A stretch of DNA of 63,846 nucleotides from Candidatus Bathyarchaeota archaeon (GTDB taxonomy: Archaea; Thermoproteota; Bathyarchaeia; Bathyarchaeales; SOJC01). Location: the NCBI GenBank assembly GCA_026014805.1, contig JAOZHR010000008.1:1-63846 (forward strand), read 5' to 3'. The notes below the pieces were generated by a model. It searched no databases. It had not been told where the DNA came from and was given only the letters and a program-made list of their open reading frames with translations. A program made the position numbers and the translations under genes. Shown piece after piece: positions 1,333 through 20,773 of this stretch. The stretch's first letter is position 1. Each line of letters begins with the position of its first letter.

Positions 1333-1674
1333 ATGGTGGTAGTCCAAACTAGACTATAGCCGCAATTCGAAGCCTACTACAAGTTTATTTACTTCTCTTA
1401 AACATTTGAAAATGTAAAATTTAATCATACAACACCCCAACTTTTTTCAAATTCACCATGCATATACCTGACATAATTTTAATATAAAAACATACACACA
1501 CGTACACATATATGTTTATTCATATTTGTTTTACAATGTCATAGCCTGAGTCATCGCGACATAGAAGAGTCTACGTTCTTCCTCTTTTTGCACGCGCTAC
1601 ATTTTAGCCTAATCTATTTTGCAAACCTAAAAGCGTTTGAATGATCTGAGCTAGCACATCAATTGCTATGCAAG

Positions 1675-1683
1675 TTATAAATA
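1675..1683 (+). promoter_or_regulatory. TATA box for the BglII-like gene
   Basis: TTATAAATA lies 28-36 bases before the GTG start at 1711 with no Shine-Dalgarno sequence between. This is the spacing expected of a leaderless archaeal transcript. Confidence 0.5.
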
Positions 1684-1710
1684 AAGGGAATTATCTCAAA
1701 CATAATTAGC

Positions 1711-2223
1711 GTGAGAAAATTGTTGCGACTACGAAGATTTTCCTATCGTTTTGCTGAGCAAGTTCTTAACAGTAAGTTAACGCTCAAACAGGAGATCGAG
1801 AGCATACTCACTGATCCAAGTATTGATATTAGTTCGTTGTCAAGACCTCGCTTCAATGAGGTTCTTAAGGAAAGATTTGTCAATAAAGGATGGGAAAGCC
1901 AACCATCCGTTTTTGATGAGCCAAAAGACCCTTCTGCTAAAATGGATTTCATGAAAGAGAGAATAGGCATCGAAGTTGGCTTTGGGCACGCTTCATTCAT
2001 TGGAATAGATCTGCTCAAGTTTCAGGTCGCTTCGTACTCTGGCCTAAACAAAATTGACATTGGCGTATATATTGTAACAACTCGGAGCTTCCAGAAAAAA
2101 ATGACTCAAGAATATGGAAAGAATTGGGCAGGGTCTCTAAGCTTCGAAAAAGTTGCCAGATACCTTCCTCACTTTAAAAGCGCAATTCAACTGCCGATTT
2201 ACGTGATTGGGGTGGACTTGTAA
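1711..2223 (+). CDS. BglII-like restriction endonuclease, copy 1
   Basis: Predicted type II-like DNA endonuclease of the BglII family (PD-(D/E)XK fold). The signature is D79, then E88 in RIGIEVGFGH, then FIGIDLLKFQ and KIDIGVYIV. The D-to-E spacing of nine residues equals that of BglII (D84, E93), but the residue two after the Glu is Gly90 where BglII has a Gln. The 170-residue length is shorter than BglII itself. There is no adjacent cognate methyltransferase; the next gene is another nuclease-fold protein 40 bases away. A clear paralogue, about half identical by eye, lies at 22494-22988. GTG start, probably leaderless. Family assignment is good; sequence specificity and activity are unknown. 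Confidence 0.75.
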   Translation: MRKLLRLRRFSYRFAEQVLNSKLTLKQEIESILTDPSIDISSLSRPRFNEVLKERFVNKGWESQPSVFDEPKDPSAKMDFMKERIGIEVGFGHASFIGIDLLKFQVASYSGLNKIDIGVYIVTTRSFQKKMTQEYGKNWAGSLSFEKVARYLPHFKSAIQLPIYVIGVDL

Positions 2224-2263
2224 TCACGTGCATATAAATAAATGAAAGGGTAGATGGATTGAA

Positions 2264-2746
2264 ATGTCTTCGGCATCAAAACGGGCACAGAAAGCTTGGG
2301 AAAATAATCCAAGAATCGGTAGTCAAGCAATGCTTTCGGGAGAATTTGGTGAAAGCTTCATTGCATATTTGTTGTCGAAGGAAGATGTAGATGTTGTTAG
2401 AGCGAGTACTGTCGGGATTGATCTATTTGCCATCGATTCTCTTGGGAAAATTTTCCCAAAGAGAGAAATCGTTGGAATTTCCGTAAAGGCGCGTATATCG
2501 AAACAACATAAAAATTTCAAGCCCACCATACCTATTGGTTCAAAGAAAGTCTTAGCGGCTGAAAAAACATGGGGCATTGCAGCTTGGATTGGCATAGTTG
2601 TTGGAAGCAAGGATAAAACTCTTGCTGCATTTGTCTTTCCTTTTAAAGATCTACCAGCGCTACGTGGGAAAGCTGTAAGAGAAGATGTAGTGGCAGTTTC
2701 TGAGTTGTACAAGGACACAACTAAAAAGGTTAAAAGATTGTTCTAA
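2264..2746 (+). CDS. PD-(D/E)XK nuclease-fold protein
   Basis: Small 160-residue protein with the core of the restriction-endonuclease fold. Glu27 and Glu30 sit in a helix GEFGESFIAYLL, D53 in VGIDLFAID, and a strand GISVKAR with S73-V-K75 occupies the usual E-x-K position. Archaeal Hjc resolvases and several orphan nucleases show the same order E...D...(E/S)xK. It begins 40 bases after the BglII-like gene and is probably co-transcribed with it, so the two may be one module. A role in recombination or in defence are both possible; I do not recognise a named family. Confidence 0.5.
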   Translation: MSSASKRAQKAWENNPRIGSQAMLSGEFGESFIAYLLSKEDVDVVRASTVGIDLFAIDSLGKIFPKREIVGISVKARISKQHKNFKPTIPIGSKKVLAAEKTWGIAAWIGIVVGSKDKTLAAFVFPFKDLPALRGKAVREDVVAVSELYKDTTKKVKRLF

Positions 2747-2830
2747 ATTCGTGCAATGCAGATAAACGCCCACGGTTTGTAAACTTTCAAGGTACACGTA
2801 ACAAACCTAATCGTGTGCAGACCATTGTCT

Positions 2831-3256
2831 CTAGATAGTTTCTGGGTGATATGCCTTAACCAATTCTCGCAAGAAATCGATCATATCAACATTAGCAATA
2901 TCATCGTAATCCAACCATTGATACATATCATGCTCTAAAGGATTAAGCCTAATCTCACCGTCTTTGTATTTGCTAAGATAGATTGCTTGAAAGGTCTGAC
3001 GAATAGGTAATTGGTCTCGGTTTGCGTAAATATAGATCACGCGTTCAACTTGAATTGTCAAGTTGGTCTCTTCACCCACCTCTCGATAAATAGCCTCTTC
3101 TAACGTTTCGCCTTGTTTCACAATTCCTCCAGGAATATCCCATTTGAGTGGCATGTAGGTGCTTAATTTTGAACGCTTAGTGACTAAATACTTATTATTC
3201 CGTTCAATTAGGGTGTGCCCAGCTACATAGAAGTCTGTCAATACATTTCTCTCCAT
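2831..3256 (-). CDS. Nudix hydrolase
   Basis: Nucleoside-diphosphate-linked pyrophosphatase. The complete Nudix box GX5EX7REVXEEXG is present, starting GGIVKQGETLEEA and continuing to REVGEET. The frame stays open to a TTG at 3319, giving up to 162 residues. I prefer the ATG at 3256 because the domain begins just after it, but no Shine-Dalgarno sequence decides between them; an ATG at 3292 is also possible. It is transcribed away from the methyltransferase/radical SAM/MazG/deaminase cassette that starts at 3443, sharing its upstream region. Nudix and MazG enzymes both clean or shape nucleotide pools, so it may belong to that cassette. The substrate cannot be told from sequence. Confidence 0.85.
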   Translation of the reverse strand: MERNVLTDFYVAGHTLIERNNKYLVTKRSKLSTYMPLKWDIPGGIVKQGETLEEAIYREVGEETNLTIQVERVIYIYANRDQLPIRQTFQAIYLSKYKDGEIRLNPLEHDMYQWLDYDDIANVDMIDFLRELVKAYHPETI

Positions 3257-3442
3257 ACATTTTTGTGTATGGCGTTTTTGGAGCATTGTCATGCATCCAG
3301 AGAAATATTGCGATATCAAAGCAATAAAGACTTTGGCTGATTCAACATCCTTTATATGTTAAAATTTTGGCTTGAATTTTTATTCCCAAAAATATTTGTT
3401 TATGTTTAGAGATAGATTATAACTATCGAGGACTCACATGCG

Positions 3443-4621
3443 ATGAACAATTATAAGATTCTGAGTTCTGAGTATGGCTCTTTCCGCAATAGTATAGTGA
3501 AGCTTTTTAAAAAGAGAGTCCTCAAAAAACCGTCAGTTTTATTGGATCCGATGGCGGGCACGGCACCATTAATTCCATTTATTGAGATGGAGGGACATAC
3601 TGCTTATCTCAATGATATTCTACCCTTACATTATTTCATCAATAAAGCAAAAACATACCGAGTTTTCATGGATTACCAAAAAAAAGGCTATGATTGGTAT
3701 TTTGAACAGTTACTCGAGTGTATGGCTCTTTTAGAAGGTAAAGTGCTGGTCATGTCCGATAATTGGATAGATGACAGTATTCTCAATGGACTGGTTGAAG
3801 CATGGCACGCAACGGAAGAATATGATGATGAATCGGCAATCCTTTTGAAGGCCATAATTATATTGTGTGTACGCCCTTTCTCTTCAGTTACGAAGTCAAA
3901 CAATCCCACTTGGCTAAAATTCGGTGGTATATCATCAGATAAGGATTTAGGGGATATAATCAAAGATAGCTTGACTAAGTTCGATGGATACTATCGTTAT
4001 TATTACCTATCACATCGCATAAAGAAAAAGGGTGAATGTATATTCACTCACCTAAACGCCACTGAATTGCAGCTGCCACAGAAAGTAGAAATTATTCTGA
4101 CTTCACCACCGTATTGTAACAGACTAGACCCTATAGTTCAGTATGGACCTGAAAACTACTTTCTCTCTGCTCTTGGACATCGTTCTCCTGATGAGAGTCT
4201 GGTCACCACTACAAAGGTTAGAAATTATGACAGACTTGAAGCGGATTTCGAATACCTCACAGCTAATTCCGAATTTGCAAATCGCTTATTGAACAAAATA
4301 AAAAAATCTAAGGCTGATGACCGAAGTTACTATCTTAAATATTATACTCGCTATTTTGCCAAGCTTTTTGAGGTTGTAATCAAAGTGCTAGACAACTTGT
4401 CTCCAAGCGGTAAAATGTATATAGTTACTCAAGACAACATCCACAGAGGTAACCTTATAGAAATCGATACAATTCTTAGAGAATTGCTTAAACAAAGGGG
4501 GTGGCGCTCTAGATTGATCAAAACATGGAATAGACATCATCTAGGTTTGAGGAATGTTTCTCGGAAACATGCGTTTGTTAAACCAAGGCATTTTGAGAAA
4601 CTTGTGGTGCTATACCAATGA
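3443..4621 (+). CDS. DNA amino-methyltransferase (N4-cytosine or N6-adenine type)
   Basis: SAM-dependent DNA methyltransferase. Motif I is LLDPMAGT (33-40) and motif IV is TSPPY (220-224), the order typical of amino-methyltransferases. The long insertion between them is rich in aromatic residues and has no recognisable target-recognition domain. Its stop overlaps the start of the radical SAM gene (ATGA at 4618-4621), so the two are translationally coupled. It heads a four-gene cassette ending in a dCMP deaminase. No restriction enzyme is in the cassette, which argues for a modification, tRNA-modification or nucleotide-linked role rather than classical restriction-modification. The base modified is not determined by what I can see. 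Confidence 0.75.
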   Translation: MNNYKILSSEYGSFRNSIVKLFKKRVLKKPSVLLDPMAGTAPLIPFIEMEGHTAYLNDILPLHYFINKAKTYRVFMDYQKKGYDWYFEQLLECMALLEGKVLVMSDNWIDDSILNGLVEAWHATEEYDDESAILLKAIIILCVRPFSSVTKSNNPTWLKFGGISSDKDLGDIIKDSLTKFDGYYRYYYLSHRIKKKGECIFTHLNATELQLPQKVEIILTSPPYCNRLDPIVQYGPENYFLSALGHRSPDESLVTTTKVRNYDRLEADFEYLTANSEFANRLLNKIKKSKADDRSYYLKYYTRYFAKLFEVVIKVLDNLSPSGKMYIVTQDNIHRGNLIEIDTILRELLKQRGWRSRLIKTWNRHHLGLRNVSRKHAFVKPRHFEKLVVLYQ

Positions 4622-5568
4622 CTTACATTGAGCGAGAAGAACCATGGGGAAAACTCAGATATGACTTATTGAAGCATAAATTCTCTTGTATTCAAACAAA
4701 TGGAAAAAACGTCGTTCCTTACTCACAGAAGCCGGTTGTTCTAAATGTTGATTTAACTATGAAGTGTAATATGAATTGTATGTATTGTGTTACCAAGGAC
4801 TTTAAACAGGCAGAAGATTTGGTAATATCAAAAAAACTTGTTGACTGGATTAATGAATCGCCTTTCATGGCAGTGGTTATTACTGGAGGTGAACCGCTTC
4901 TTCCCGAGTATGAAAAACAGCTAATAACGCTTCTCCAAAAAATTGAAAACAAAGGTCTGATTATTGATACAAATGGAACTATTCTTCCTAGCGATTCAGT
5001 GATGGAAGCGATTCATGAATCTCATGTTTTAGTTCGTATTTCTTGTGATGCTGCTCGTTCAGGTGATGAAATACATTATCGTCATTTAAAGCCATATTCA
5101 CAACGGAATATGAAAGAAAATCTGGAGTATTACAATAAAAAAATCGATATGATGGAACACATGCGTTCAGAAGGCGTTAATGTTGCGATACAAAGTGTGG
5201 CTATTAATCAGAATCGCATATCACTCGAGAATATGCCTTCCTTATTAAAAAAATATTCTATTAACCATTGGTATATACAGAGATTCATTCCTTCATATAA
5301 AGCAATTGGAAGGAAACTTGGATTTAGCAATGTTGGATATGACCAACTTATTGAAGATTTGACAGAAAGGTGTAATAAAATGAATATTGAATTCGTGACA
5401 AAAAAAGACCGGAGACATAATTGTGTTGTTCTATTGGTTGGAGACGGGATTCTTTATACACAAGGTGAAAAACCAGGTCAAAAGCTTACAATAGGTACAA
5501 TACATTCTAAAACCAGATATTTTGATTATATAAGTTCCGCGGATCATGCGGAAAGGTATTATATTTAA
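4618..5568 (+). CDS. Radical SAM enzyme
   Basis: Radical SAM protein of 316 residues. The CX3CX2C cluster is C50, C54 and C57 in KCNMNCMYC, followed by the SAM-binding TGGEP (89-93). The C-terminal part ends in GDGILYTQGEKPGQKLTIGT, like the tail of MoaA-type enzymes, but has no extra cysteine cluster of SPASM type. It is coupled to the methyltransferase before it and followed 35 bases later by a MazG-like gene and then a dCMP deaminase. That company suggests a nucleotide or nucleobase substrate. Viperin-type enzymes, which make altered nucleotides, are an alternative to test, although the viperin-specific motif around the cluster is not convincing here. Confidence 0.8.
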   Translation: MTYIEREEPWGKLRYDLLKHKFSCIQTNGKNVVPYSQKPVVLNVDLTMKCNMNCMYCVTKDFKQAEDLVISKKLVDWINESPFMAVVITGGEPLLPEYEKQLITLLQKIENKGLIIDTNGTILPSDSVMEAIHESHVLVRISCDAARSGDEIHYRHLKPYSQRNMKENLEYYNKKIDMMEHMRSEGVNVAIQSVAINQNRISLENMPSLLKKYSINHWYIQRFIPSYKAIGRKLGFSNVGYDQLIEDLTERCNKMNIEFVTKKDRRHNCVVLLVGDGILYTQGEKPGQKLTIGTIHSKTRYFDYISSADHAERYYI

Positions 5569-5603
5569 GTTATCTATTCACAATTCATTGCAGGTTAGAA
5601 AAA

Positions 5604-6593
5604 ATGAAATCGCATGAAAATTGGTCGATAAAGAAATGGAGCGAAATGTTCTCAGAGTTGTATTCCCAAGCAGATTCCAAAAGAACACCAGAGCAGATGT
5701 GGATTGCAGTAATGGCTCACACTAGCTTCATAGGAGAGAATATCCGGAAGATTGCTTTTGAAAGTTTGTTAAATTCTGCTGCACATACATTCTGCTGGTT
5801 ATGCAGCTTTGTAAATAAATGTAATAAATTTCAGGATGACATTTTTTCGATTGATGAAAACCTTAGTGAGATTGTTTCCCTAAAATACCCGAGGGTGTGT
5901 GGTCACTGCGGAGCTAGCACCTGCTCATGCGATCCAGAAAAAATGGATAAGGAAGAAAATAAATCCGCTCTTTACAAAGACCTTTTTAACCGCCGAAAAG
6001 AAATTTTGGCATCAGTTAAAAATTATTCAATCAAAACTTGGAAGGGAATATTCCGGCGTATTTATAGTGGAAGGATTCATATTCAAACACTTGAAAGTAT
6101 TGGCTTTCATTTCTTGGAGGAAGTGGGAGAAGCAGCTTTTTGTATTAGGAAACTTGGTCAATTAAGAAAGGTTACTGAATACCCCAAAACAGAGATCGAT
6201 TTGGATTTCTTGAATGAGCTATCGACCGTTAAAGGAATCGTCGAAAAATACGATGATTTAGAGAAGTTGATAAGAAAACTTGATTATTCTTCCACTGAAG
6301 CAAACATGGTCAAAGCAAGAGTAGTGGAAGCTAAAATGGGTTTGATTGTTGAAATTGGCGATTCATTCTCCTGGTTCTGTGCAATTCTGAATAAATTAAA
6401 TTCCATATCAAAAGCAATATTTGACAAACCCGAGGAGCACCAAGAATTTCCAAAATTGGATCAAGTTCTGACTAACGAATATTTTGACACTGATAATAAT
6501 CCTAGATGCCCTCATTGCAAAAGTAAACCTTGTGAGTGTACTTTCTATATTGACACTGATAAAAGTCGATCAGCAAACGCAAAAAGGAAGTAG
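5604..6593 (+). CDS. Tandem MazG-like NTP pyrophosphatase with two zinc knuckles
   Basis: The protein is an internal duplication. The C-terminal half has the all-alpha NTP pyrophosphatase signature: EEVGE (172-176) in one helix and EIGD (250-253) in the next, giving the EExxE...ExxD metal site of the MazG/dUTPase superfamily. It is followed by CPHC-x4-CEC (C302, C305, C310, C312). The N-terminal half repeats the same plan, including NSAAHTFCWL opposite EIGDSFSWF, but lacks the metal-binding acids. It ends in a matching knuckle with C99, C102, C107 and C109. I infer one active and one inactive subunit fused together. Substrate is unknown; a role beside the deaminase downstream is likely. Confidence 0.65.
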   Translation: MKSHENWSIKKWSEMFSELYSQADSKRTPEQMWIAVMAHTSFIGENIRKIAFESLLNSAAHTFCWLCSFVNKCNKFQDDIFSIDENLSEIVSLKYPRVCGHCGASTCSCDPEKMDKEENKSALYKDLFNRRKEILASVKNYSIKTWKGIFRRIYSGRIHIQTLESIGFHFLEEVGEAAFCIRKLGQLRKVTEYPKTEIDLDFLNELSTVKGIVEKYDDLEKLIRKLDYSSTEANMVKARVVEAKMGLIVEIGDSFSWFCAILNKLNSISKAIFDKPEEHQEFPKLDQVLTNEYFDTDNNPRCPHCKSKPCECTFYIDTDKSRSANAKRK

Positions 6594-6597
6594 TCTA

Positions 6598-7125
6598 ATG
6601 AACTCAATTTCAAGACCTTCTCTACATGAGCATTTCTTCAACAGAGCCAAAGTTGTCGCCCAACGAAGTACATGTTTGAGAAGAAAAGTAGGTGCAATTA
6701 TTGTTAATGAAAATGGTGTGCAGCTTAGCTCTGGTTATTCTGGAGCCCCAAGAAACTTAAAACATTGTGCTGCTATTGGAAAGTGTCTTAGAATTGAACT
6801 AGGAATTCCATCTGGACAGAGATATGAATTATGTAGGAGTGTACATGCAGAACAGAACGCTATAATAAACGCAGCGAGAATCGGGACCGCAATTTTAGGT
6901 GGAGAATTATACATTTCAAGCCAAAAGATGAACGAATATACTAACGGAAATGAAAAGAATAAAATTTACGGCCCGTGTATCATATGTAAGAAAGAAATAA
7001 TCAACGCTGGCTTAAAAAAAGTACATATGAGAGAGATCGGAGTTGGGGATAAAACATATAATCTTGAAGATATCAAAAAATTGTTGGCGAAAGAGGAAGA
7101 AGAATGGAGAAAAAATGTTGAGTAA
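6598..7125 (+). CDS. Deoxycytidylate (dCMP) deaminase family protein
   Basis: Zinc-dependent cytidine/deoxycytidylate deaminase. The catalytic HAEQN (83-87) and PCIIC (C127, C130) bind zinc, and SGYSGAP (45-51) with the following H56-C57 matches the second metal region typical of dCMP deaminases. The frame extends upstream to 6484, but the ATG at 6598 follows the MazG stop by four bases and starts the conserved domain, so I take it as the start. The C-terminus ends in a charged helix. dCMP deaminase makes dUMP; in this cassette it may instead act on a nucleotide produced by the radical SAM or MazG-like protein. Confidence 0.85.
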   Translation: MNSISRPSLHEHFFNRAKVVAQRSTCLRRKVGAIIVNENGVQLSSGYSGAPRNLKHCAAIGKCLRIELGIPSGQRYELCRSVHAEQNAIINAARIGTAILGGELYISSQKMNEYTNGNEKNKIYGPCIICKKEIINAGLKKVHMREIGVGDKTYNLEDIKKLLAKEEEEWRKNVE

Positions 7126-7313
7126 TATACCCGCGCTCACTCTAATGAAATTTTCAAATGACTTTTTCGAAAATTCCGGGCGCGGAATTTATTGTGAAAT
7201 GATTTCTTGGACAAGACTAGAGTAATAGACAGAGTTAAGTCCCAATTTTCTGCCTCTAACCGAGTTTTCTGGGTCCAGTTGTTGTTTACATCCAAGTCTT
7301 CTAACACACAATT

Positions 7314-7523
7314 CTACTTTTTCAAGTTGATTACGATTTTTGGCTTTAGCATCAAAGTGTGTGCCTTAGGATTCCATTTAATCTCAAGTCTACCTGCAAA
7401 AAACAAATCCGTTAGTATCATGTTACATTCTTCTTCGTCAAACTCCTCATAACCATTCACTTTGCACCCAAGGTTTTCAATAAAATCAGAAAAGAATTGC
7501 CTTATTACAGCTTCTTTAGTCAT
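7314..7523 (-). CDS. Small protein of unknown function
   Basis: A 69-residue acidic-to-mixed protein with no recognised motif. The ATG at 7523 follows a good Shine-Dalgarno sequence (GAGGTGA, seven bases away), which I use rather than the GTG at 7532. A different minus-strand frame continues downstream to 7189 with coding-like sequence (QLEKVELCVRRLGCKQQL), so a frameshift near 7390 may have split a longer gene. It follows the 148-residue gene on the same strand and probably belongs to the same mobile-element operon. Confidence 0.5.
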   Translation of the reverse strand: MTKEAVIRQFFSDFIENLGCKVNGYEEFDEEECNMILTDLFFAGRLEIKWNPKAHTLMLKPKIVINLKK

Positions 7524-7569
7524 ACATTTCACCTCTCAATTCACATTTTTCAATTCAATTATCAAGAAA

Positions 7570-8016
7570 TCAACCATATTGCTCAACGTAGTTTTCCCAG
7601 TATTCTGCTAGGTTTCTAAGCCTGCTGGCAAATGTTTTACTCATGGAAATTGGGCTGTATCTGTATGGCTTTGCGGTCAGGCCGCTTTTCCACATCATCT
7701 TGAACACTTTGGCAATAGTATCTTTGCTGACTATTTTCACTCTTTCATCTTTACCAGTGCCTTTAGGACCTTTAGGGTTAGTGATTTTGGTGTGTGTTAA
7801 TCTTGTTTCAGTTTGTATGAATGGGATAACGTCCCGCAGCAAGTAAGCACTTTTGTGATGTGACAAGTATTCTAGTATGTTCAACGCGATTCTTTGATGT
7901 AGCTCATTGTTTGGAAAAACTACTCTCAGAAAAGAATTGAGGTCAACAAATATGCGATTCGTGTTTTTTCTATCAATTAATGGTCTGACGTAGTGATGAA
8001 CCTTTCTGCTTTTCAA
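7570..8016 (-). CDS. Uncharacterised basic protein of mobile-element block
   Basis: A 148-residue basic protein. Residues near 40-115 alternate predicted helices with a short turn (ITNPKGPKGTGKDERVKIV), consistent with a winged-helix-like DNA-binding domain, but I do not recognise a family. Its ATG overlaps the stop of the upstream Cys-rich gene by four bases (ATGA at 8013-8016), so translation is coupled. Position between other small genes and a TOPRIM gene on the same strand suggests plasmid or virus origin. Confidence 0.55.
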   Translation of the reverse strand: MKSRKVHHYVRPLIDRKNTNRIFVDLNSFLRVVFPNNELHQRIALNILEYLSHHKSAYLLRDVIPFIQTETRLTHTKITNPKGPKGTGKDERVKIVSKDTIAKVFKMMWKSGLTAKPYRYSPISMSKTFASRLRNLAEYWENYVEQYG

Positions 8017-8195
8017 CTTTCATACACCTCCCTATCTTTAACGTAAACAATGTCCACACCTGCACCAACGAAAACTATGTGAATATTTCTTGATACGTAA
8101 CAAACGCAGTTTTCACTCGTTTCGTTAACATCAATATCGAATTCACCGCATTTTCCATTTTCAAAATATTTGCAATTCACACACTTTTTAGTCAA
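8013..8195 (-). CDS. Small cysteine-rich protein
   Basis: 60 residues. The N-terminal half has four spaced cysteines (C5, C8, then C16 and C30 in the region CGEFDIDVNETSENC), like short zinc-binding domains found in archaeal viruses and plasmids. The C-terminal half is hydrophobic and beta-rich. The start is a TTG after a strong GAGGAGG Shine-Dalgarno sequence. It overlaps the next gene. No specific function can be named. Confidence 0.5.
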   Translation of the reverse strand: MTKKCVNCKYFENGKCGEFDIDVNETSENCVCYVSRNIHIVFVGAGVDIVYVKDREVYES

Positions 8196-8543
8196 TTGTA
8201 AAAATCCTCCTCATGAAGGCGCGAATAGTGTAATAGTTATGTATGATTGAATGATGATGTGTGGGTGTGTACTGTCAAAAAATGACAAAATAAACATATC
8301 CAATATGCATGTACAAAAATCAAAGCTAATTGTTGTCTAACATTACCATGAACAAACTCAACGCTGTCATCCATTTGAACATCATACAATCACTAACGCA
8401 ATCTACTGTAATCCCAATACAGAAAGCCCTCAACTCATGATTTCATGCATTTAATTCCCTGATGTTCACAATTACAGGTGTCTCTGAGATCTAAATAGTG
8501 AGTGTCGTCTCATTGGACATATTTAGTGAATTCAGCTAGAAGG
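8196..8543. other. Intergenic stretch with short palindrome
   Basis: No gene is seen in this AT-rich stretch. The only structure noted is TGTCA-AAAAA-TGACA at 8273-8287, which could be a repressor site for the operon reading leftwards. Confidence 0.4.
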
Positions 8544-8837
8544 CTAAGTGAATTCGAGTTTGTCGTTGTCTTTTTTGAGAAAAACAACAGTTTCATCATC
8601 CATTATTAGCACAAACCCAGCATCTTGCAGCTCATTAATGTATTTTCTAGTAGTTTCTGGGTCCCAACTTACATATCTATTACCTATCTTCTGGTAGGAG
8701 AAATGTCCGCAGACTTCGCAGATTTCGCATTTTTCGCGTTGTTTTATAAACATGAGTACTTTGTGCATCCTAGCTCCTCTCCCTTCCTGCCAGGGCTCAA
8801 AACCTCTTCGAACTCTGTCATCTTCTTTTCTAGGCAT
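8544..8837 (-). CDS. Small winged-helix-like protein with cysteine pair
   Basis: 97 residues. The middle contains KCEICEVCGHFSYQKIG and then WDPETTRKYINELQDAGFVL, which looks like the recognition part and wing of a small helix-turn-helix domain. The start ATG has an excellent Shine-Dalgarno sequence (AAAGGAGG). It lies 94 bases after the TOPRIM gene on the same strand. Probably a DNA-binding accessory protein of a mobile element; the regulator role is inference. Confidence 0.5.
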   Translation of the reverse strand: MPRKEDDRVRRGFEPWQEGRGARMHKVLMFIKQREKCEICEVCGHFSYQKIGNRYVSWDPETTRKYINELQDAGFVLIMDDETVVFLKKDNDKLEFT

Positions 8838-8931
8838 TAAACAACCTCCTTTACACTTGTATAAATCTTAAATATCCAAAAAAGGGGGAAAATATGTGGA
8901 ACAATTTGCGAGGCGAGCAATTTTAATCAGG

Positions 8932-10077
8932 CTAGAACTCCTCACAAATCGGTAGGACGTATTTTTTCAATGCTTCAAGAACTCGTCTGCATTTGTTGCT
9001 TTCCAGTATGGCTTTTTTTCCTAATTCAACCAATTTGTTCTCTACGTCGTCCACATTGACTATGGCAGAACGCTGATATTCTTCGTATCCTGCTTCTTCA
9101 ATCTCTTCATAAACCGCGTCGAGTCCATAGGACTCAACGAAAGGGACGATTGCTTTGAGAGCCTCAAATTCGAGTGGGAGCGCACCTTTGACAGTTATCG
9201 ACCTGCTCAATCTCCGCTTTGGGCATATGATCTCCATTCGCTCTTTCAAGTATTGCCAAAACTTTTCTATCTTGACAGACGCCAACACCGCTTCAATTTC
9301 GACGCCATACATCGCAAGACGTTTTATGAACTCGGCTGAATAGTTGTCTGTTTCCCAGAGATAGGCCAAATCCGATTCCCTTGGTGTTGCTTGTTGTTCA
9401 AGCTCCTGTTTTAATAGACCCAATTCTCGAATCATCTGACTGTCAACGCCTAAACATGGCAGTTTGCCAGTCTTCTCCCACCATACTAGCCCCGCCGCGT
9501 CAAAATCCGTCAGAACAAACACGTTGGCCTTATTTTCTTTACTTCGAAGATATTTTACCAAGGATTTGACATAATCTTGTGCAAATCCACAGTTGGTGAT
9601 TATGGCGACACCTAACGGTTCTGCGTAGGGTTGCAGTAGTTCCACAATTCCTTCTTTTCTGCATAATATAACATCTGTTCCTTTCTTCGCCAAGTCAACA
9701 AAGTCCCAGTATTTTATTGGCTCATCAGAACCTCTGAAGAGAAATTGAGCTGGCCCATTGTTGATTATTCCTAGAGTTTCACGCCAGCCAATTCCGCGCC
9801 CAGGCCCGATGCAATGGAGTGCCTTTATTTCTTTGGGAAGAATTTCCTTGAAAGATTGGTACAAGCTCCTAATGTTCTTGCCGATTGGGCTAATGTCCAT
9901 TGCTCTGCAGAATTCATGGAAAAGGATTCTGGAGGTCGTCATTTCCCCAGGTTGAAGAATGTCGAACTTTGTGTAAATTGTGAAACGTCTTTTGAGCTCT
10001 TTTCGTAAAAACTGTCGCATTTTGCCATTAAGCTCAGGTTGAATCTTTTCGATGGGATTAACAACTGAGTGTTGCAT
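8932..10077 (-). CDS. TOPRIM-domain protein (Spo11/Topo VI-A-like)
   Basis: 381 residues. The central part fits a TOPRIM fold: E142 in CRKEGIVELL, then TDFDAAG with D191 and D193, the acid pattern that binds magnesium in topoisomerases, primases and Spo11-like proteins. The preceding region (30-130) is helical and may bind DNA; there is no catalytic tyrosine I can place with confidence. The C-terminal third is acidic. A Shine-Dalgarno GGAG precedes the ATG. It is divergent from the helix-turn-helix gene at 10172, with an inverted repeat between them. Related proteins are known from archaeal mobile elements and may act in their replication or segregation. Confidence 0.6.
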   Translation of the reverse strand: MQHSVVNPIEKIQPELNGKMRQFLRKELKRRFTIYTKFDILQPGEMTTSRILFHEFCRAMDISPIGKNIRSLYQSFKEILPKEIKALHCIGPGRGIGWRETLGIINNGPAQFLFRGSDEPIKYWDFVDLAKKGTDVILCRKEGIVELLQPYAEPLGVAIITNCGFAQDYVKSLVKYLRSKENKANVFVLTDFDAAGLVWWEKTGKLPCLGVDSQMIRELGLLKQELEQQATPRESDLAYLWETDNYSAEFIKRLAMYGVEIEAVLASVKIEKFWQYLKERMEIICPKRRLSRSITVKGALPLEFEALKAIVPFVESYGLDAVYEEIEEAGYEEYQRSAIVNVDDVENKLVELGKKAILESNKCRRVLEALKKYVLPICEEF

Positions 10078-10120
10078 ATTTCAAACTCCTTTTTAGTCCA
10101 CATTTTCTTTTTATTGTATG

Positions 10121-10150
10121 ATATGTGCCGCGTAACACATATATATATAA
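10121..10150. promoter_or_regulatory. Inverted repeat operator and TATA box in divergent promoter
   Basis: ATATGTG (10121-10127) and CACATAT (10136-10142) form a seven-base inverted repeat with an eight-base spacer. The right arm runs into an ATATATATAA tract suited to a TATA box for the gene at 10172. It is probably where a regulator controls both divergent genes. Confidence 0.45.
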
Positions 10151-10171
10151 TGTACTTATACTATCAACAGG

Positions 10172-11038
10172 ATGTATACTATGCCATTAACATATGAGCC
10201 ACTTATTGAGGATATGGAATTTCAAAAATCACACACAAAACATCTCGGAGTTCCTGAGTGGAGAGTTTTGCTGGCTTTAGCACACGGTGGTCCTAGAAAT
10301 ATGTATCAAATCGCCAAGACCTACAACTTCAAGTACCCAGTGGTTCATCGTGCTACCAAAAATCTCCACGAAATTAGATGGATAAAAATCGTGAGAAGAA
10401 GACTTTCCTCAAAGAACGTTTTTGCGACAATCTATAGTTTGAAAAGTGAAGGGTTGTTGTGGCTCCTGAGTAGAATACCTAGAACACTTCATCCATCACT
10501 TGTGGATTTTTCAGAGCCTGACTCGCTAGGTCTAAGAAAGAGAATTGATGAACAGAAGACCTGCGTACTAGCTAATTTGGCAACCCAGGATGATGTGTAT
10601 TTGCATCTCCTTTTTAACTTTGACTTGGATAAAATTGCGAAGAGTAACAGTGGACTTTTTCCCCTTGTCTTCGGAAACTGGGATTTGTTCAAAGAGATTG
10701 GCGTGACACAATGTCTAGGTTGTGAATTTCCTAAAGCGGCCTTTTCCACATTGGTAGAGTACTATTACGATTACGGGGGCCTCAAGAGCAAGCTTGGCAC
10801 AATCGAGATGCTTTTCACTTACAAGCTATTCTATGCCTTTCTTGAAATCTTTGCTGAAGGGTATGTAGATTCCCCAGCAGAGTTCAGAGAAGAAAGTGTC
10901 CAGAAAGTGGCAACAGCATTCAAAAGCACTCCACAGCTTAGGAAATTGTATGAGCAAATTTGCAGCGACATCGAGAACAAGCTTAGTCAAAGTCAGATCT
11001 TTATTAGACGTGTTAGAGCGAGCATGAATCATCATTAG
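10172..11038 (+). CDS. Winged-helix transcriptional regulator-like protein
   Basis: 288 residues. The N-terminal part (25-95) reads as a winged helix: WRVLLALAHGGPRNMYQIAK, then a recognition helix around YPVVHRATKNLHE and a basic wing with RRRLSSKN. The remaining 190 residues are helical, with no known ligand motif. An alternative ATG lies nine bases downstream. It is divergent from the TOPRIM gene and a good candidate to bind the inverted repeat at 10121-10142. Plasmid-encoded regulators of this sort are common in archaea. Confidence 0.6.
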   Translation: MYTMPLTYEPLIEDMEFQKSHTKHLGVPEWRVLLALAHGGPRNMYQIAKTYNFKYPVVHRATKNLHEIRWIKIVRRRLSSKNVFATIYSLKSEGLLWLLSRIPRTLHPSLVDFSEPDSLGLRKRIDEQKTCVLANLATQDDVYLHLLFNFDLDKIAKSNSGLFPLVFGNWDLFKEIGVTQCLGCEFPKAAFSTLVEYYYDYGGLKSKLGTIEMLFTYKLFYAFLEIFAEGYVDSPAEFREESVQKVATAFKSTPQLRKLYEQICSDIENKLSQSQIFIRRVRASMNHH

Positions 11039-11058
11039 CACGCACCGAAGCTCACATA

Positions 11059-11715
11059 TCACTTAGGAACTTGTCTAAGAACTCTGCCTATGTTTTTGAA
11101 TAAGTCAGCGTCTTGAGACACTACAAGGAACTTCCGCGTGTGCTTGCGAGCTTCTGCCATGAAACTCCTCACAAAAGGGCTTTCTTGGAACCGATGAGCT
11201 TCTTCAAGGATGATTATCCAATCTTTAAGCGATTTCTGAAACATTATCAGATGACGAAAGATACTATCCACCTCTGATTTGCTCACATCAACATTTACGG
11301 ATGGTAATAGTCGGTATTTTCCATTGTTATTTTTGAAACTGAGCCCAAAGAAATCACCAAGATTGAGCGTTTTTAGGTGACAATTACAGTATTCAGCATG
11401 GACATCTACAACGAAAACAGCGAAGTCTTTTGATAGTTTTGGGATTAACATCTTTTGTAAGAAATAGGTTTTTCCTGAACCTGGCAAACCAGTGAGAATT
11501 ATCGGAATGGAGTCAGCCATGACTGTTTCATAGGATACTGCAGGATACTCTTTTAGTTCTTTAGATAAGATAAGGCTGATTACACTATCATAGGTTGGAA
11601 GGTTGAAGACACTTTTCAACACGCGTAATTTTTCTCGATTTCGAACTGTAACGCGGACCATAGTAACCTTACGCTTGATTGATGTATACATATTGTCAAC
11701 ATTCATAAATGACAA
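11059..11715 (-). CDS. Ribbon-helix-helix / P-loop ATPase fusion (HerA/FtsK-like, short)
   Basis: 218 residues. Residues 17-56 (VTMVRVTVRNREKLRVLK...) look like a ribbon-helix-helix DNA-binding domain. They are followed by a P-loop ATPase with Walker A GLPGSGKT (76-83), Walker B IIILEEAH (167-174) and a sensor SQDADL (200-205). The ATPase most resembles HerA/VirB4-type DNA pumps, in which EEAH is typical, but it is less than half their usual length and stops soon after the sensor. It may be a dedicated DNA-partitioning or packaging ATPase, or a truncated one. No membrane segment is seen. Confidence 0.6.
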   Translation of the reverse strand: MSFMNVDNMYTSIKRKVTMVRVTVRNREKLRVLKSVFNLPTYDSVISLILSKELKEYPAVSYETVMADSIPIILTGLPGSGKTYFLQKMLIPKLSKDFAVFVVDVHAEYCNCHLKTLNLGDFFGLSFKNNNGKYRLLPSVNVDVSKSEVDSIFRHLIMFQKSLKDWIIILEEAHRFQESPFVRSFMAEARKHTRKFLVVSQDADLFKNIGRVLRQVPK

Positions 11716-12251
11716 CCAGTTAATCCAACATCACAATATTGAAATTTATCACAGCTTAAAACATAAATACCCAATTTTTTGACAACGAGCACTTACCTTG
11801 CTTAAATAAAATAACCTTTAAATGAACTTGAATGAACATCATATGAGCTTTATCTGTCAAGAGCTCTTTACAATAATGTTATTCAATGCAACCAAATATA
11901 TAAATGTTTGGATAATAGTTATTAATATAATCATCAAATTGAATCAATCCAACAAAACAATGATTTCATAATGTGACACCACATGTTTACTTGATTATAT
12001 CAATCATCAATGTCATTATTTTGTATGTATCATATGTGAAATTTCCTTAGAAAACATGGTTACCATTAATATAATGCGCACGCATTTTCTGATGATAGAT
12101 AATTGTGAAATCGCTTTAGAAGTCTTAGCTTCAATCGAAACTTTGAACAAAATGTTTGTAAGCGAGAATGTTTGACTTCTATCGTTATGGAAGGATTCGT
12201 TTGAAAAAATTTCACACGAAATTGGCTAAATTATCATGGATCATCTTCAAC
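11716..12251. other. Very AT-rich intergenic stretch
   Basis: No gene is visible. The 11-base word ATTAATATAAT occurs directly repeated at 11931 and 12065, and there are several further A/T palindromic words. It separates the mobile-element block from the McrBC operon and could hold a replication or partition site, but nothing proves this. Confidence 0.45.
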
Positions 12252-13523
12252 TCATCTTTCTGCGGTAGTTGAATCGGTTAGAAATTTATCCTCAATATAG
12301 CCTAGGAGTGTTTGTTCCTCTGCCCGAATGTCTTTATTGGCCAGATTAAAGTGATAGGTGAAAATTCTGACGCCTGATATCTGCCCAATATATTCCTCTC
12401 CAGATAAAACAGATGTCTTTGGACATATTAGAACCCCGACATTTGATCTATACGAAAGACAATAAGTGATAATCTGGTTTAGGTCTTCTCGTCTTGGTTG
12501 ATCCTTATACTTGGCATCAATGATTAGTGGAAATATTTTCTCTTTCTTTATCACGATATCTGGGGTTGTGGTATACATCTGATTATCAGAAAAGAGTTTT
12601 TTCATTCCCTCTGCTTTGTTCCCATTAAGAACTTTTACATTTTTTCTTTGAATTCCCTCTTTCAAAACTCTGAAAAGATACTTTTCGAAGACATCAGACA
12701 TCTTAATGATAAGAGAAGGGAGATAGATGTCTTGCTCAAAACGTTGTACATCTATTGACGATTGATTTATTATAAGAAGAGAAATTCTCAAAATTGCATT
12801 GTAATAGCTCCTTATAAAAGGAACCTGACTTGTCTCAAGTATATCTTTGACATCAACAAGGAATTTTTTATCTCTATCTAGTTTCACTTGCTCGAAAAAT
12901 CGATAAAAGTAAATCGCTTTTCTAACAAGATTTCTTGGTTTATAGTTTAGATCACGAAAATGGTTTAAAATAGTCCATAATGCGTATTTTATAGCTCTGT
13001 TTTCAGGAATATCTTTGTCCAGTAAGAAGAACGAATGAGCTATTATGTGATCTTGATGTCTCATAACGTTTCTCATTGTTTCTTTGAACAGGATCTTCCC
13101 TTTCAGAAGACCATCATTATGAAACATTGTTTCATATTTCCGATATACCCCGAACTTGTCGATATTTTGAAGATCTTGGAGGAAGCTTCTTATGATGAAG
13201 TCGAAAATGCCGGCAGAAGAATATAGTAGCTCACCATACATCCTTTCATAATCAATATCTATGACTCTTTCACCTGATTTATGAATAAGATGCATTAGAT
13301 TACTCAAAGGTACTTTTGGGTGAACGTTTATAGCAACTTCATCATTTAGAGGGATAAGCCCAATATATTCCCCTGCGGTTAACACCAAACTACTTCTTCT
13401 AAATAATATGTTGAAATATCCCTTTTGCTGAACATCTGTATAAATATTAAACTTACCATCTTTCATAACATGTTCAATCGGTATATCTGTTGGACTCCAT
13501 TCAATGGCATCAAATATCTGCAA
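12252..13523 (-). CDS. mcrC: McrC-like nuclease subunit of a McrBC system
   Basis: DNA-cleaving partner of the McrB GTPase. The 423-residue protein has the McrC layout: an N-terminal beta domain ending near INVHPK (65-70), a helical middle, MSDVFEKY (275-282), and a C-terminal PD-(D/E)XK nuclease with D322 in TTPDIVI and D336-A-K338 in IIDAKYK. The start lies two bases after the McrB stop, so they are one transcription unit. McrBC cuts modified DNA in Escherichia coli. Here, with two methyltransferases upstream, it more likely acts like the LlaJI restriction subunits and cuts unmodified DNA. Confidence 0.87.
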   Translation of the reverse strand: MQIFDAIEWSPTDIPIEHVMKDGKFNIYTDVQQKGYFNILFRRSSLVLTAGEYIGLIPLNDEVAINVHPKVPLSNLMHLIHKSGERVIDIDYERMYGELLYSSAGIFDFIIRSFLQDLQNIDKFGVYRKYETMFHNDGLLKGKILFKETMRNVMRHQDHIIAHSFFLLDKDIPENRAIKYALWTILNHFRDLNYKPRNLVRKAIYFYRFFEQVKLDRDKKFLVDVKDILETSQVPFIRSYYNAILRISLLIINQSSIDVQRFEQDIYLPSLIIKMSDVFEKYLFRVLKEGIQRKNVKVLNGNKAEGMKKLFSDNQMYTTTPDIVIKKEKIFPLIIDAKYKDQPRREDLNQIITYCLSYRSNVGVLICPKTSVLSGEEYIGQISGVRIFTYHFNLANKDIRAEEQTLLGYIEDKFLTDSTTAER

Positions 13524-13525
13524 TT

Positions 13526-15208
13526 CTATTCAGACCACGGATACAGATTTTTTATTTCGCTAAATTTGTCAGGTTCATACTGGAAATATTTCTTGAACAA
13601 ATCTCGGAGTTGATATCTCCACAGTCTTCCTAGGTCTTCTTCATTTCTAACGTTCACAAAATAAGCATGCCCAAAACCAATTTCGTAGATCTCTTGAATC
13701 CTTTCAGAGAATTCAACAACTCTCTCAATCAACTCAGGAGCCATGTTCTGTAAAGACAAAATCTCTTTAAGAATTCTAGTGCTAGGGGGCATCTTAACTT
13801 GTTTAAATCTTCTTTCCATCATTATATCCAATTCGGAGATTGATCGATCAAAAGGATTCATAGTTCCAATTATTATGAGGTTCTCAGGCACATAGAAGGA
13901 ATCTTCAGTATACAGTAGGTTTATTGGCTTATGAGGATATTCCATGTAAGTCAGTATCTCGCCAAAAATCCTGCTTGCATCGCCTCTAGTGAATTCATCT
14001 ATCACCAAAACATAGTATCTCTGAGGATCCAAAAGTGCCTTATCACAAATTATCTTGAAAATCTTATCCTTAAGAACAAATCCTGAACCTTTTGGATTAG
14101 GGATATAGCCTTCGATGAAATCCTCATAACTGTAGGACTGATGAAACTGAGTTTTTTCAACACGTGCTGCATCACCGCCAACAATTTTCAATGCAATCTT
14201 TTCTGCATACCAAGTTTTGCTTGTTCCAGGTGGACCTACAAGAAGAATTCGCTTGATACCTTGATCAAGTAAGTTCTCCTTTACCTCTTTCCAAATAGGA
14301 TCTTCATCACTGAGTAAATCTTCTTGTGAAACGTTGAGCAATACCGATGCTCCATAATGTGCAAACCAACGGTTTACATTTATTCCCTCGGGAAGATTCT
14401 CTGGTTGATTGCTGAGCATATAATCGATAAATGCTTCGTAATTGTCATTCAAGCGGTAAATAGTAGTGCCCAGAGGACATTGCCCTTTTCTTAAAATTAT
14501 TCCTGAATTAGTTTGCGAGAAATTCTCGAACCCCACTCCTGCCCGATGCATAAAATATAACGGTCTAGCTGGTGTTCCTGAGATGGGGTCACCGAATTCT
14601 CTGTCAATCTCTTCCCTAGAAGGATTACCAGATAGTTTCTTTCGATATTTATGAATCTGAGTTATAGTTTCACGAATTTCTTTCATGTAAGCAATCTTGA
14701 CTAGAAACCTACGAAATTCGTCGTCTGAGATGTAGTTTGAGCATTCTCTCATAATTCTGAAAAGAGCCCAATAAGGAAAAATATCTCCTTTGCTGAGATA
14801 TGATTCTCCTCTTCTTGCTGGATTCCATTGTTGATATCGAGAAACAATTTCAGTCAAGAAATAAGGAAAGAATTTCAGATAGTCTGGCGCATTCTTTATC
14901 AACATATATGCCTGTTTTCCAGCATCTGTAAATCTGAAAACTGTCTTTCCATTCTCAACTACTCTGGATGTCCATCCTTGTTCCTCGAATGCAGTTATAT
15001 AGGTCTCTACTTTGCTCAATTTCGCTGATTTTCTTTTTGCGCCTTGTAAGATTCTATGTCGCCCATCTGCCTCCTCTCGGAAATCATGATCATATTCTCT
15101 TCCATCCATGTCCCAAAGAACCATCAGTAGATTAATGGCTGAGGGTGTTAACGTACAGTATTGAGCATTTATCCAGATATCGTCAGGATTAGTATATTGA
15201 TCAGACAT
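13526..15208 (-). CDS. mcrB: McrB-like AAA+ GTPase subunit
   Basis: Motor subunit of the restriction complex. Walker A GPPGTSKT (325-332), Walker B VLVIDE (400-405), the McrB signature MNPFDRS (450-456; most members have MNTADRS) and the ERRF arginines at 466-467 are all present. The N-terminal 320 residues start with a winged-helix-like segment (20-105) and carry the DNA-recognition part, unlike the E. coli methyl-binding domain. It starts two bases after the methyltransferase stop and ends two bases before mcrC. The GTP rather than ATP preference is inherited from the family, not visible here. Confidence 0.87.
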   Translation of the reverse strand: MSDQYTNPDDIWINAQYCTLTPSAINLLMVLWDMDGREYDHDFREEADGRHRILQGAKRKSAKLSKVETYITAFEEQGWTSRVVENGKTVFRFTDAGKQAYMLIKNAPDYLKFFPYFLTEIVSRYQQWNPARRGESYLSKGDIFPYWALFRIMRECSNYISDDEFRRFLVKIAYMKEIRETITQIHKYRKKLSGNPSREEIDREFGDPISGTPARPLYFMHRAGVGFENFSQTNSGIILRKGQCPLGTTIYRLNDNYEAFIDYMLSNQPENLPEGINVNRWFAHYGASVLLNVSQEDLLSDEDPIWKEVKENLLDQGIKRILLVGPPGTSKTWYAEKIALKIVGGDAARVEKTQFHQSYSYEDFIEGYIPNPKGSGFVLKDKIFKIICDKALLDPQRYYVLVIDEFTRGDASRIFGEILTYMEYPHKPINLLYTEDSFYVPENLIIIGTMNPFDRSISELDIMMERRFKQVKMPPSTRILKEILSLQNMAPELIERVVEFSERIQEIYEIGFGHAYFVNVRNEEDLGRLWRYQLRDLFKKYFQYEPDKFSEIKNLYPWSE

Positions 15209-15210
15209 TT

Positions 15211-16305: not shown

Positions 16306-16517
16306 AATAGTCTTCTCTTTTTGGTTTCTGAGATGTCTCTTTATCGCCCAACGAGGAACCTGAGGGATGAATTTGGAAGGAAATTTATGAATTTTATGAG
16401 TTAAGTAAGCTACGTTATTGTCAGATATGACGTACCCTTGTTCGAATGGAATAAGGCCATCATGGGGCAGTTCTAAAATATTTAGAAGATTTATTGTCTC
16501 TCACCCCATTTTTGTCT

Positions 16518-17918: not shown

Positions 17919-18125
17919 TCCTCACTGAATCAGAAGCAATGTTGTCTAACAAATTATTGACAGCCTCGTCAAAGTGACCTTAGGTGTTCTTCTGCGTTTC
18001 ACTAGCTCAACTAGATACTGCTCTAATCGTTTGTAAGTATTGATTTTTAAGACAATTGTTCGATTTCTGACGCTTCGGCCTCTTTTTCTCAAAGTCTTTA
18101 CACCGAATGTATTCAATATATTAAA

Positions 18126-19301: not shown

Positions 19302-19815
19302 ACCAAATGCCTCGTCTTGGATTATTATGACCTTTCTATTGTCAATACTGTATATGTACTGTATAATAATTTTAAGGAACTTGGCTGAAGGTAGAACCTG
19401 CTCAGATGTAAGTATAACTTAGATTTAAACGAGTCATAAAAAAGAAGTCTATCTATAAACTAAATGTGTTCTAAGGATTGTATTCTTCTCCATAGCTCGT
19501 ACAGATCATTACTATGTCGTAAATGTCTATGATTCCATAGGGTTCAGCTATGTCACAGTGAGGATTCCAGCTAGGATCTATTGGTGTTGAACCATACGCA
19601 TTGCAGGCTAACACAACATCGTAAATGTCTACTTTCTTCAACTTTTCTCCCTAGATGAAATGCACATTGGAAACTATTAGCATTTCTGGAACAATCTTCT
19701 ACTCGAATCTCACATTGTTTTTCATAGAATATAACGGCTAGATTCGAGAGCAATCTACAATATAGAAGAAGAGGACGAGTTCATTTGCTGAATATAACAA
19801 CCATGGAAAATTCAT
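19302..19815. other. Intergenic stretch with dockerin-domain relic
   Basis: Apart from the relic at 19471-19650 nothing coding is seen. AT-rich sequence around 19340-19370 (TATATGTACTGTATAATAAT) is a likely promoter for the HsdR_N-like gene reading leftwards. Confidence 0.5.
19471..19650 (-). pseudogene. Remnant of a dockerin-like (EF-hand type) protein C-terminus
   Basis: On the minus strand an open frame without a start codon runs from an in-frame stop at 19651-19653 to a stop at 19471. It encodes KVDIYDVVLACNAYGSTP, then DPSWNPHCDIAEPYG, then IIDIYDIVMICTSYGEEYNP. The two DIYD(V/I)V repeats with AYGS spacing are the calcium-binding dockerin-like repeats found at the C-terminus of many secreted Bathyarchaeial proteins. 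The rest of the protein is missing, so this is the tail of a lost secreted protein. Confidence 0.7.
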
Positions 19816-20646: not shown

Positions 20647-20764
20647 TTCATCGCATTCCTATATCTGAAACAATTTTTAATTGAATTTTAACCTATAAAA
20701 TAAGTTTTATGAATTGCTAGTAAGGCAAACTTTCTAAGTTTCTACTTCCTATTCTATTAAAAAG

Positions 20765-20773
20765 GTTATAAAC
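20765..20773 (+). promoter_or_regulatory. TATA box of the HEAT/BglII-like operon
   Basis: GTTATAAAC lies 55 bases before the start codon at 20828. A Shine-Dalgarno sequence (AAGGAG) lies between, so the transcript has a short leader. Confidence 0.4.

What the first reader, a model, noticed from the sequence alone, without database searches (positions are those of the whole stretch)
2831..7125. Cassette of DNA methyltransferase, radical SAM, double MazG-like protein and dCMP deaminase, with a divergent Nudix gene
Four genes in tight array (overlap 4, gaps 35 and 4 bases) combine a DNA amino-methyltransferase, a radical SAM enzyme, a nucleotide pyrophosphatase and a deoxynucleotide deaminase. 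A Nudix hydrolase sits divergently at the upstream end. I know no described system with this set. It could make or destroy a modified nucleotide, or cut the dNTP pool during infection.
Basis: partly seen in the sequence, partly recalled or inferred. Interest (0 to 1): 0.75.

Follow-up and report, generated by a model that had tools for sequence, protein, structure and literature searches.

The report
Nucleotide-enzyme operon in mobile archaeal island
A mobile DNA island in an archaeon's chromosome, full of restriction genes, carries a tight four-gene operon (DNA methyltransferase, radical SAM enzyme, double MazG-like protein, dCMP deaminase) that was found in no other genome searched, so it is a real but one-off set whose likely theme is pyrimidine deoxynucleotides and whose function is unproven.

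Summary
MTase (3443-4621), radical SAM (4618-5568), tandem MazG-like (5604-6593) and dCMP deaminase (6598-7125) lie head to tail with a 4-base overlap and gaps of 35 and 4; a Nudix gene (2831-3319) is divergent. The element also carries two BglII/BstYI-type restriction genes, McrBC with two MTases and a HsdR_N protein.

The set is not a recurrent system in any data I could search. The radical SAM protein has no near relative in 150 order-level, 257 class-level or 398 phylum-level genomes. The closest dCMP deaminase (70%) is a lone chromosomal gene. The tandem MazG-like protein recurs once, in G017, beside a different MTase, a non-orthologous radical SAM and a TMP-kinase-like gene, near a HamB-like helicase gene. 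The radical SAM is not a viperin (51 bits; cutoff 180; real viperins 270-302).

Best reading: an operon in a mobile restriction island that remodels the pyrimidine dNTP pool (dCTP to dCMP to dUMP) and probably makes or removes a modified nucleotide. This is inferred, not shown.

The parts
1384..1402 (.). left 19-bp attachment-site repeat TTTATTTACTTCTCTTAAA (attL)
   Evidence: exact direct repeat D7; flank 1340-1402 matches G001:C32 at 97%
1403..28514 (.). 27.1-kb integrated element, GC 0.367 against 0.446 in the rest of the window to its right
   Evidence: 19-bp repeats at both ends; empty site in G001:C32 and G009:C16; GC
28496..28514 (.). right 19-bp attachment-site repeat (attR)
   Evidence: flank 28496-32847 matches G001:C32 at 93%
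27029..28450 (-). tyrosine-type integrase with C-terminal zinc ribbon, at the right end of the element
   Evidence: PF00589, 60.8 bits, cutoff 27.1
1711..2223 (+). BglII/BstYI-type restriction endonuclease upstream of the cassette (second copy at 22494-22988, 57% identical)
   Evidence: PF09195 E 3.5e-44; BstYI 1sdo E 4e-8; pairwise identity
2264..2746 (+). 160-aa protein that looks nuclease-like by eye (GExxxAxxL...GIDL...VKAR); no family hit
   Evidence: no hit in Pfam, NCBIfam, PHROGs or PADLOC; reading by eye only
2831..3319 (-). Nudix hydrolase, divergent from the operon
   Evidence: PF00293 E 1.9e-17; PHROG MutT E 2.8e-21
3320..3442 (.). divergent intergenic region, presumed promoter region of both units (AT-rich, TTTATATG near 3350)
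   Evidence: sequence; promoter function inferred only
3443..4621 (+). amino-type DNA methyltransferase (DPMAGT...SPPY order), 392 aa
   Evidence: PHROG_18146 E 3e-17; PADLOC MTase_II PDLC03224 E 5e-13
4618..5568 (+). radical SAM enzyme, 316 aa, CxxxCxxC, no cysteine-rich SPASM domain
   Evidence: PF04055 E 3.9e-12; viperin and other radical SAM models all far below their cutoffs
5604..6593 (+). tandem MazG-like protein, 329 aa: first half without catalytic acids, second half EEVGE...EIGD, each half followed by a CxxC...CxC zinc-knuckle motif
   Evidence: alignments A1 and A5 with relatives that hit Pfam MazG
6598..7125 (+). dCMP deaminase, 175 aa, HAE and PCxxC intact; the only copy found in this genome
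   Evidence: PF00383 E 3.8e-16; PDB dCMP deaminases 2hvv/4p9c; single match in own genome

Best explanation
The four genes form one operon, with the divergent Nudix gene as its likely partner. They are cargo of a 27.1-kb integrative element that also carries several restriction-modification genes. The most likely working theme is remodelling of the pyrimidine deoxynucleotide pool. The second half of the MazG-like protein hydrolyses a dNTP (most plausibly dCTP, dUTP or a modified pyrimidine) to the monophosphate plus pyrophosphate. The dCMP deaminase turns dCMP into dUMP. The radical SAM enzyme makes or unmakes a modified nucleotide or base, the MTase marks DNA, and the Nudix enzyme cleans up. 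In a restriction-rich mobile island the benefit would be competition with, or defence against, other invading DNA, or protection of the element itself. Shown: the genes, their intact motifs, the operon layout and the mobile element. Inferred: co-transcription, all substrates and the biological role.
For: Four same-strand genes with ATGA overlap and gaps of 35 and 4 bases. Catalytic motifs intact in the MTase, radical SAM, second MazG-like half, deaminase and Nudix. An all-alpha NTP pyrophosphatase next to a dCMP deaminase gives a simple two-step route dCTP to dCMP to dUMP (established enzymology of both families, not tested here). The element's ends, integrase and empty site are shown, as is its restriction cargo. 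The only other tandem MazG-like gene found, in G017, is followed by a SAM methyltransferase, a cysteine-poor radical SAM gene and a thymidylate-kinase-like gene, close to a helicase that matches HamB models.
Against: The set is found once only. The G017 and window radical SAM proteins are not orthologous: each is closer to other radical SAM families than to the other. The G017 MTase is an unrelated type. The nearest deaminase is a stand-alone chromosomal gene in G012, so it may have been picked up separately. No structure model was usable (pLDDT 35 and 38). No substrate evidence exists.
Confidence: 0.33

Rival explanations
1. Chance accretion: independent genes (an orphan or restriction-linked MTase, a radical SAM gene, housecleaning NTP pyrophosphatase and Nudix, and a dUMP-supplying deaminase) gathered in the cargo zone of a mobile element and share only a promoter.
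For: No second instance of the set was found. The deaminase stands alone in G012. Single-domain MazG-like relatives are ordinary archaeal genes near glyA and the polymerase gene. The element clearly collects cargo, with two BglII-type genes and three amino-type MTases.
Against: Tight spacing including an ATGA overlap. Functional coherence around nucleotides. The second tandem MazG-like locus also has an MTase, a radical SAM gene and a deoxypyrimidine gene next to it.
Confidence: 0.32
2. Modification arm of a restriction system: the MTase protects the island's BglII/BstYI-type sites (R^GATCY) or others, and the radical SAM enzyme further modifies the methylated base, with the nucleotide enzymes as accessories.
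For: A BglII/BstYI-type endonuclease lies 1.2 kb upstream on the same strand. The MTase is a distant relative of the island's own type II MTase. MTase and radical SAM genes overlap by 4 bases.
Against: BglII-type sites are not avoided: 12 AGATCT in the element against 10.5 expected. Two other MTases in the island could serve the endonucleases. BglII-type genes on plasmids showed no neighbour like this cassette. A restriction system needs no deaminase or NTP pyrophosphatase.
Confidence: 0.2
3. Viperin-like antiviral module: the radical SAM enzyme makes a chain-terminating nucleotide analogue, and the other enzymes feed or protect the pool.
For: Viperin is the best PADLOC family for the radical SAM (E 3e-19) and viperin-type proteins are the best PDB matches. 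Both lack a SPASM domain.
Against: Only 51.5 bits on NCBIfam viperin (cutoff 180), while three real viperins score 270-302 on that model and themselves score about 50-79 on unrelated radical SAM models. The His of the N-x-H-x4-C motif is Asp, the RWK segment is HWY, and the conserved C-terminal segment is missing.
Confidence: 0.06
4. Replication help for the element: the deaminase, MazG-like and Nudix enzymes supply dUMP/dTTP and clean the dNTP pool during element replication, as auxiliary nucleotide genes do in many viruses.
For: Deaminase relatives are frequent in viruses (10 viral loci, best 55%; 432 phage records). The same-genus genome G001 has no match to it, and it is the only copy found in this genome.
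Against: Does not account for the MTase and radical SAM genes in the same operon. The element shows no virion genes by the searches made, and the closest deaminase relative is chromosomal (70%).
Confidence: 0.09

Closest known systems
Prokaryotic viperins (radical SAM nucleotide dehydratases)
   Same: radical SAM core with CxxxCxxC, no SPASM domain; some viperins sit beside a nucleotide kinase gene
   Different: scores at background on the viperin model; motif His is Asp; RWK and C-terminal segment not conserved; partners here are MTase, MazG-like and deaminase, not a nucleotide kinase
Deoxycytidine deaminase anti-phage proteins (AvcD, dCTP deaminase family; PMC10511110)
   Same: zinc deaminase fold acting on deoxycytidine nucleotides; the expected outcome (loss of dCTP/dCMP) could be the same
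   Different: here a 175-aa stand-alone dCMP deaminase without the N-terminal part of the anti-phage proteins; 58 bits against a cutoff of 400; the dCTP step would need the MazG-like neighbour
MazG / all-alpha NTP pyrophosphatases (E. coli MazG 3CRC, M. tuberculosis MazG; PMC10014863)
   Same: tandem all-alpha domains with EExxE...ExxD; only one half keeps the full acidic set (in E. coli MazG the named active-site acids are residues 171-196)
   Different: two added CxxC...CxC zinc-knuckle motifs; only 28% identity to the single tandem relative found; no direct Pfam match
Type II restriction-modification (BglII/BstYI with amino-MTase)
   Same: BglII-type endonuclease and amino-MTase in the same element and on the same strand
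   Different: not adjacent; pairing unproven; extra radical SAM and nucleotide enzymes have no counterpart
G017 tandem-MazG locus (L070)
   Same: tandem MazG-like, SAM methyltransferase, cysteine-poor radical SAM and TMP-kinase-like genes in a row, near a HamB-like helicase gene
   Different: MTase of an unrelated class; radical SAM not orthologous; kinase in place of deaminase; no Nudix

Membership tests
Viperin | score above the curated NCBIfam viperin cutoff (NF038283, 180 bits) | tested here: not met
   51.5 bits; three plasmid-borne viperins used as controls score 270-302
Viperin | N-x-H-x4-CxxxCxxC-F motif | tested here: not met
   NVDLTMKCNMNCMYCV: His is Asp, Phe is Val
Viperin | RWK segment and conserved C-terminal segment | tested here: not met
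   HWY; C-terminal segment absent in alignment A3
Viperin | makes ddh-nucleotides | not testable with these tools
   needs anaerobic enzyme assay
Radical SAM superfamily | CxxxCxxC in PF04055 above cutoff | tested here: met
   47.1 bits, cutoff 29.5
SPASM radical SAM enzymes | C-terminal cysteine-rich auxiliary-cluster domain | tested here: not met
   two C-terminal cysteines only, at 252 and 269
MazG / all-alpha NTP pyrophosphatase | Pfam MazG match | tested here: inconclusive
   no direct hit; relatives at 28-32% identity hit above cutoff
MazG / all-alpha NTP pyrophosphatase | EExxE...ExxD metal site | tested here: met
   second half EEVGE...EIGD; absent from the first half
dCMP deaminase | PF00383 with HAE and PCxxC zinc site | tested here: met
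   59.3 bits, cutoff 25; SVHAEQNA and GPCIIC
Anti-phage dCTP/dC deaminase (AvcD type) | full-length match including the N-terminal domain | tested here: not met
   175 aa; NF041025 57.9 bits against cutoff 400, deaminase part only
Amino-type DNA methyltransferase | motif I DPxxGxGT and motif IV S/DPPY with family match | tested here: met
   DPMAGTA and SPPY; PHROG 3e-17 and PADLOC 5e-13 over most of the length; Pfam below cutoff
Amino-type DNA methyltransferase | methylates DNA at a motif | not testable with these tools
   needs methylome data
Integrative mobile element | att direct repeats, integrase, empty site | tested here: met
Recurrent multi-gene defence system | the same genes together in several genomes | tested here: not met
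   set found once in the data searched; tandem MazG-like gene recurs once with non-orthologous neighbours

The most novel reading that the evidence does not exclude
A new nucleotide-based defence or DNA-modification system of archaeal mobile elements, built on a tandem MazG-like protein (one dead half, one active half, two zinc knuckles) that works with a cysteine-poor radical SAM enzyme, a methyltransferase and an exchangeable deoxypyrimidine enzyme (dCMP deaminase here, TMP-kinase-like in G017).
Probability: 0.14. Interest if true: 0.78.

Novelty: new variant of a known kind. Interest (0 to 1): 0.42.

Why it matters
If the operon works as one unit, it would link radical SAM chemistry, DNA methylation and control of the dCTP/dUMP pool in one archaeal mobile-element module, a combination for which no description was found here. 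Even if not, the finding maps a complete 27-kb archaeal integrative element with ends, empty site and cargo, and points to tandem MazG-like proteins (including MazG-MazG-TIR fusions in two other genomes) as candidates for study in archaeal conflict systems.

Tried and rejected
Viperin: rejected on score with positive controls and on motifs. AvcD-type anti-phage deaminase: rejected on domain content. Phage or plasmid origin of the whole set: no tblastn match for the MTase or the tandem MazG-like protein in 50,697 phage and 72,556 plasmid records; the radical SAM had no phage match and only two weak plasmid matches to other radical SAM families. IMG/VR scans with each cassette protein found relatives of the deaminase only. 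The one scan of genome contigs with the radical SAM gave one distant SPASM-type protein. Alignment A2 was too diverse to scan with. AlphaFold2 on single sequences gave pLDDT 35 and 38, so no fold search was run. BglII-site avoidance: none. Orthology of the G017 and window radical SAM proteins: rejected.
Full report
Setting. The window is a whole contig (C8, 63,846 bases) of a 1.79-Mb archaeal assembly, 97% complete (archaeal LSU rRNA at 60632-63703). The 19-bp repeat TTTATTTACTTCTCTTAAA occurs exactly at 1384-1402 and 28496-28514. In the same-genus genome G001 the sequences flanking the two copies are joined across one copy of this repeat with one mismatch (G001:C32). The match coordinates in G009:C16 show the same arrangement. 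An integrase gene lies just inside the right end (27029-28450). GC is 0.367 inside and 0.446 in the window to the right of it. The cassette is therefore cargo of a 27.1-kb integrated element.

Other cargo. There are BglII/BstYI-type endonucleases at 1711-2223 and 22494-22988 (57% identical). McrC (12252-13523) and an AAA protein in the McrB position (13526-15208) are followed by two amino-type MTases (15211-16305 and 16518-17918). There is also a HsdR_N protein (18126-19301) and a YgjP-like peptidase (24732-25031). The element is thus rich in restriction genes.

The cassette. The MTase has DPMAGT then SPPY. Its best models are PHROG_18146 (E 3e-17) and PADLOC MTase_II PDLC03224 (E 5e-13), the model that also best fits the island's MTase at 16518-17918. 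The radical SAM protein has CxxxCxxC in NVDLTMKCNMNCMYCV and no cysteine-rich C-terminal domain. The 329-aa protein is a tandem MazG-like protein. It does not hit Pfam MazG directly, but the first half aligns at about 30% with single-domain archaeal proteins that hit Pfam MazG at 46-49 bits, and the whole aligns with a G017 protein (28%) whose second half hits Pfam MazG above cutoff. The acids EExxE and ExxD are intact in the second half and lost in the first. Each half ends in a CxxC...CxC motif. In E. coli MazG the named active-site acids lie at residues 171-196 (PMC10014863), that is in its second domain, so one inert and one active half has a precedent. The deaminase keeps HAE and PCxxC and matches solved dCMP deaminases.

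Does the set recur? The radical SAM had no match at E 1e-15 in 150 relatives, none at 1e-12 in 257 class-level genomes, and only 26-28%-identical SPASM-type or other proteins at 1e-10 in 398 phylum-level genomes. The MTase had one partial 25% match in 200 relatives. The tandem MazG-like protein had one relative of the same architecture, in G017, in the order-level and phylum-level searches. The deaminase is the only copy found in its own genome. Its nearest relative is a lone chromosomal gene in G012 (70%), and the next nearest found is in a viral contig (55%). Phage, plasmid and viral-contig searches found no second cassette. Limits: the IMG/VR and genome-contig scans rely on exact short peptides and find close relatives only, the phylum was sampled, and metagenomes could not be scanned.

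The G017 locus. Downstream of the tandem MazG-like gene in G017 (L070 8242-9138) come a class I methyltransferase, a radical SAM protein with a cysteine-poor C-terminus (10184-11101) and a thymidylate-kinase-like protein (11179-11772, PF02223 E 2e-27). Further genes on the opposite strand follow (a TIM-barrel protein, an unassigned one and a weakly glycosylase-like one), then two genes of which the second, a helicase, matches HamB models. The functional classes resemble the window cassette. The proteins, other than the MazG-like one, are not orthologous: the G017 radical SAM is closest to heme and peptide-maturase families and matches the window radical SAM more weakly than any other protein in the test set. 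I count this as suggestive, from a single case.

Viperin test. PADLOC ranks viperin first for the radical SAM and viperin-type proteins are the best PDB matches. The controls decide. Three real viperins score 270-302 bits on the NCBIfam viperin model, whose cutoff is 180, and score about 50-79 on unrelated radical SAM models. The window protein scores 51.5 on the viperin model, which is background. It also lacks the motif His, the RWK segment and the C-terminal segment. The G017 radical SAM likewise ranks viperin first in PADLOC without being one, which shows how little that ranking means in a library with few radical SAM models.

Mechanism. The adjacent MazG-like and deaminase genes suggest dCTP to dCMP to dUMP, which follows from established enzymology of both families and was not tested. 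Anti-phage deaminases such as AvcD deplete dCTP and dCMP (PMC10511110), so the expected outcome is comparable, but the protein here is not of that type. What the radical SAM and MTase contribute is open: base modification or a modified nucleotide are both possible. Restriction pairing with the BglII-type gene has no support from site avoidance.

Verdict. A conserved five-gene system is not supported by the data searched. A mobile, probably functional nucleotide operon is the best reading, with accretion of independent genes almost as likely.

Noticed in passing
L071 7133-8182 and L104 2365-3402: MazG-MazG-TIR-like fusion proteins (349 and 345 aa) in two archaeal genomes of the same phylum; the first MazG half keeps its acids, a zinc knuckle precedes a part that matches TIR weakly in L071 (E 0.0025, below cutoff) and by eye in L104. 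Possible NTP-linked TIR effectors.
   Followed up: partly
window 12252-17918: McrC, a McrB-like AAA protein and two amino-type MTases in a row, reminiscent of LlaJI-type systems (from memory) but with amino-MTases in place of 5-methylcytosine enzymes.
   Followed up: partly
window 8932-10077: 381-aa protein that resembles the Topo VI A / Spo11 part by eye; relative in G077 (L068 2826-5177) is a 783-aa protein that looks like a B-A fusion, next to an integrase 39% identical to this element's. May mark an element family.
   Followed up: partly
window 1334-1384: Only the first about 21 nt of a tRNA-Gly gene that is intact beside the empty site in G001 (L049 1540-1617) remain next to attL; left of it lies a histidine kinase region, so a second rearrangement or insertion, or an assembly join, broke the tRNA here.
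   Followed up: partly
window 1301-1333: A 33-nt sequence with two short palindromes (GGAGATGTCTCC, CCACTATGGTGG) recurs at several unrelated places in G001 and other family members at 81-100% identity; not matched by Rfam at gathering cutoffs.
   Followed up: no
window 1711-2223 and 22494-22988: Two BglII/BstYI-type genes, 57% identical, in one element; the second follows a 554-aa gene of unknown function (20828-22492).
   Followed up: partly
L015, L017, L018, L019 (G269, G033, G024, G039): Radical SAM matches reported with an in-frame TAG in relatives; could be alignment reading upstream of the start, or TAG read as a residue. Not examined.
   Followed up: no
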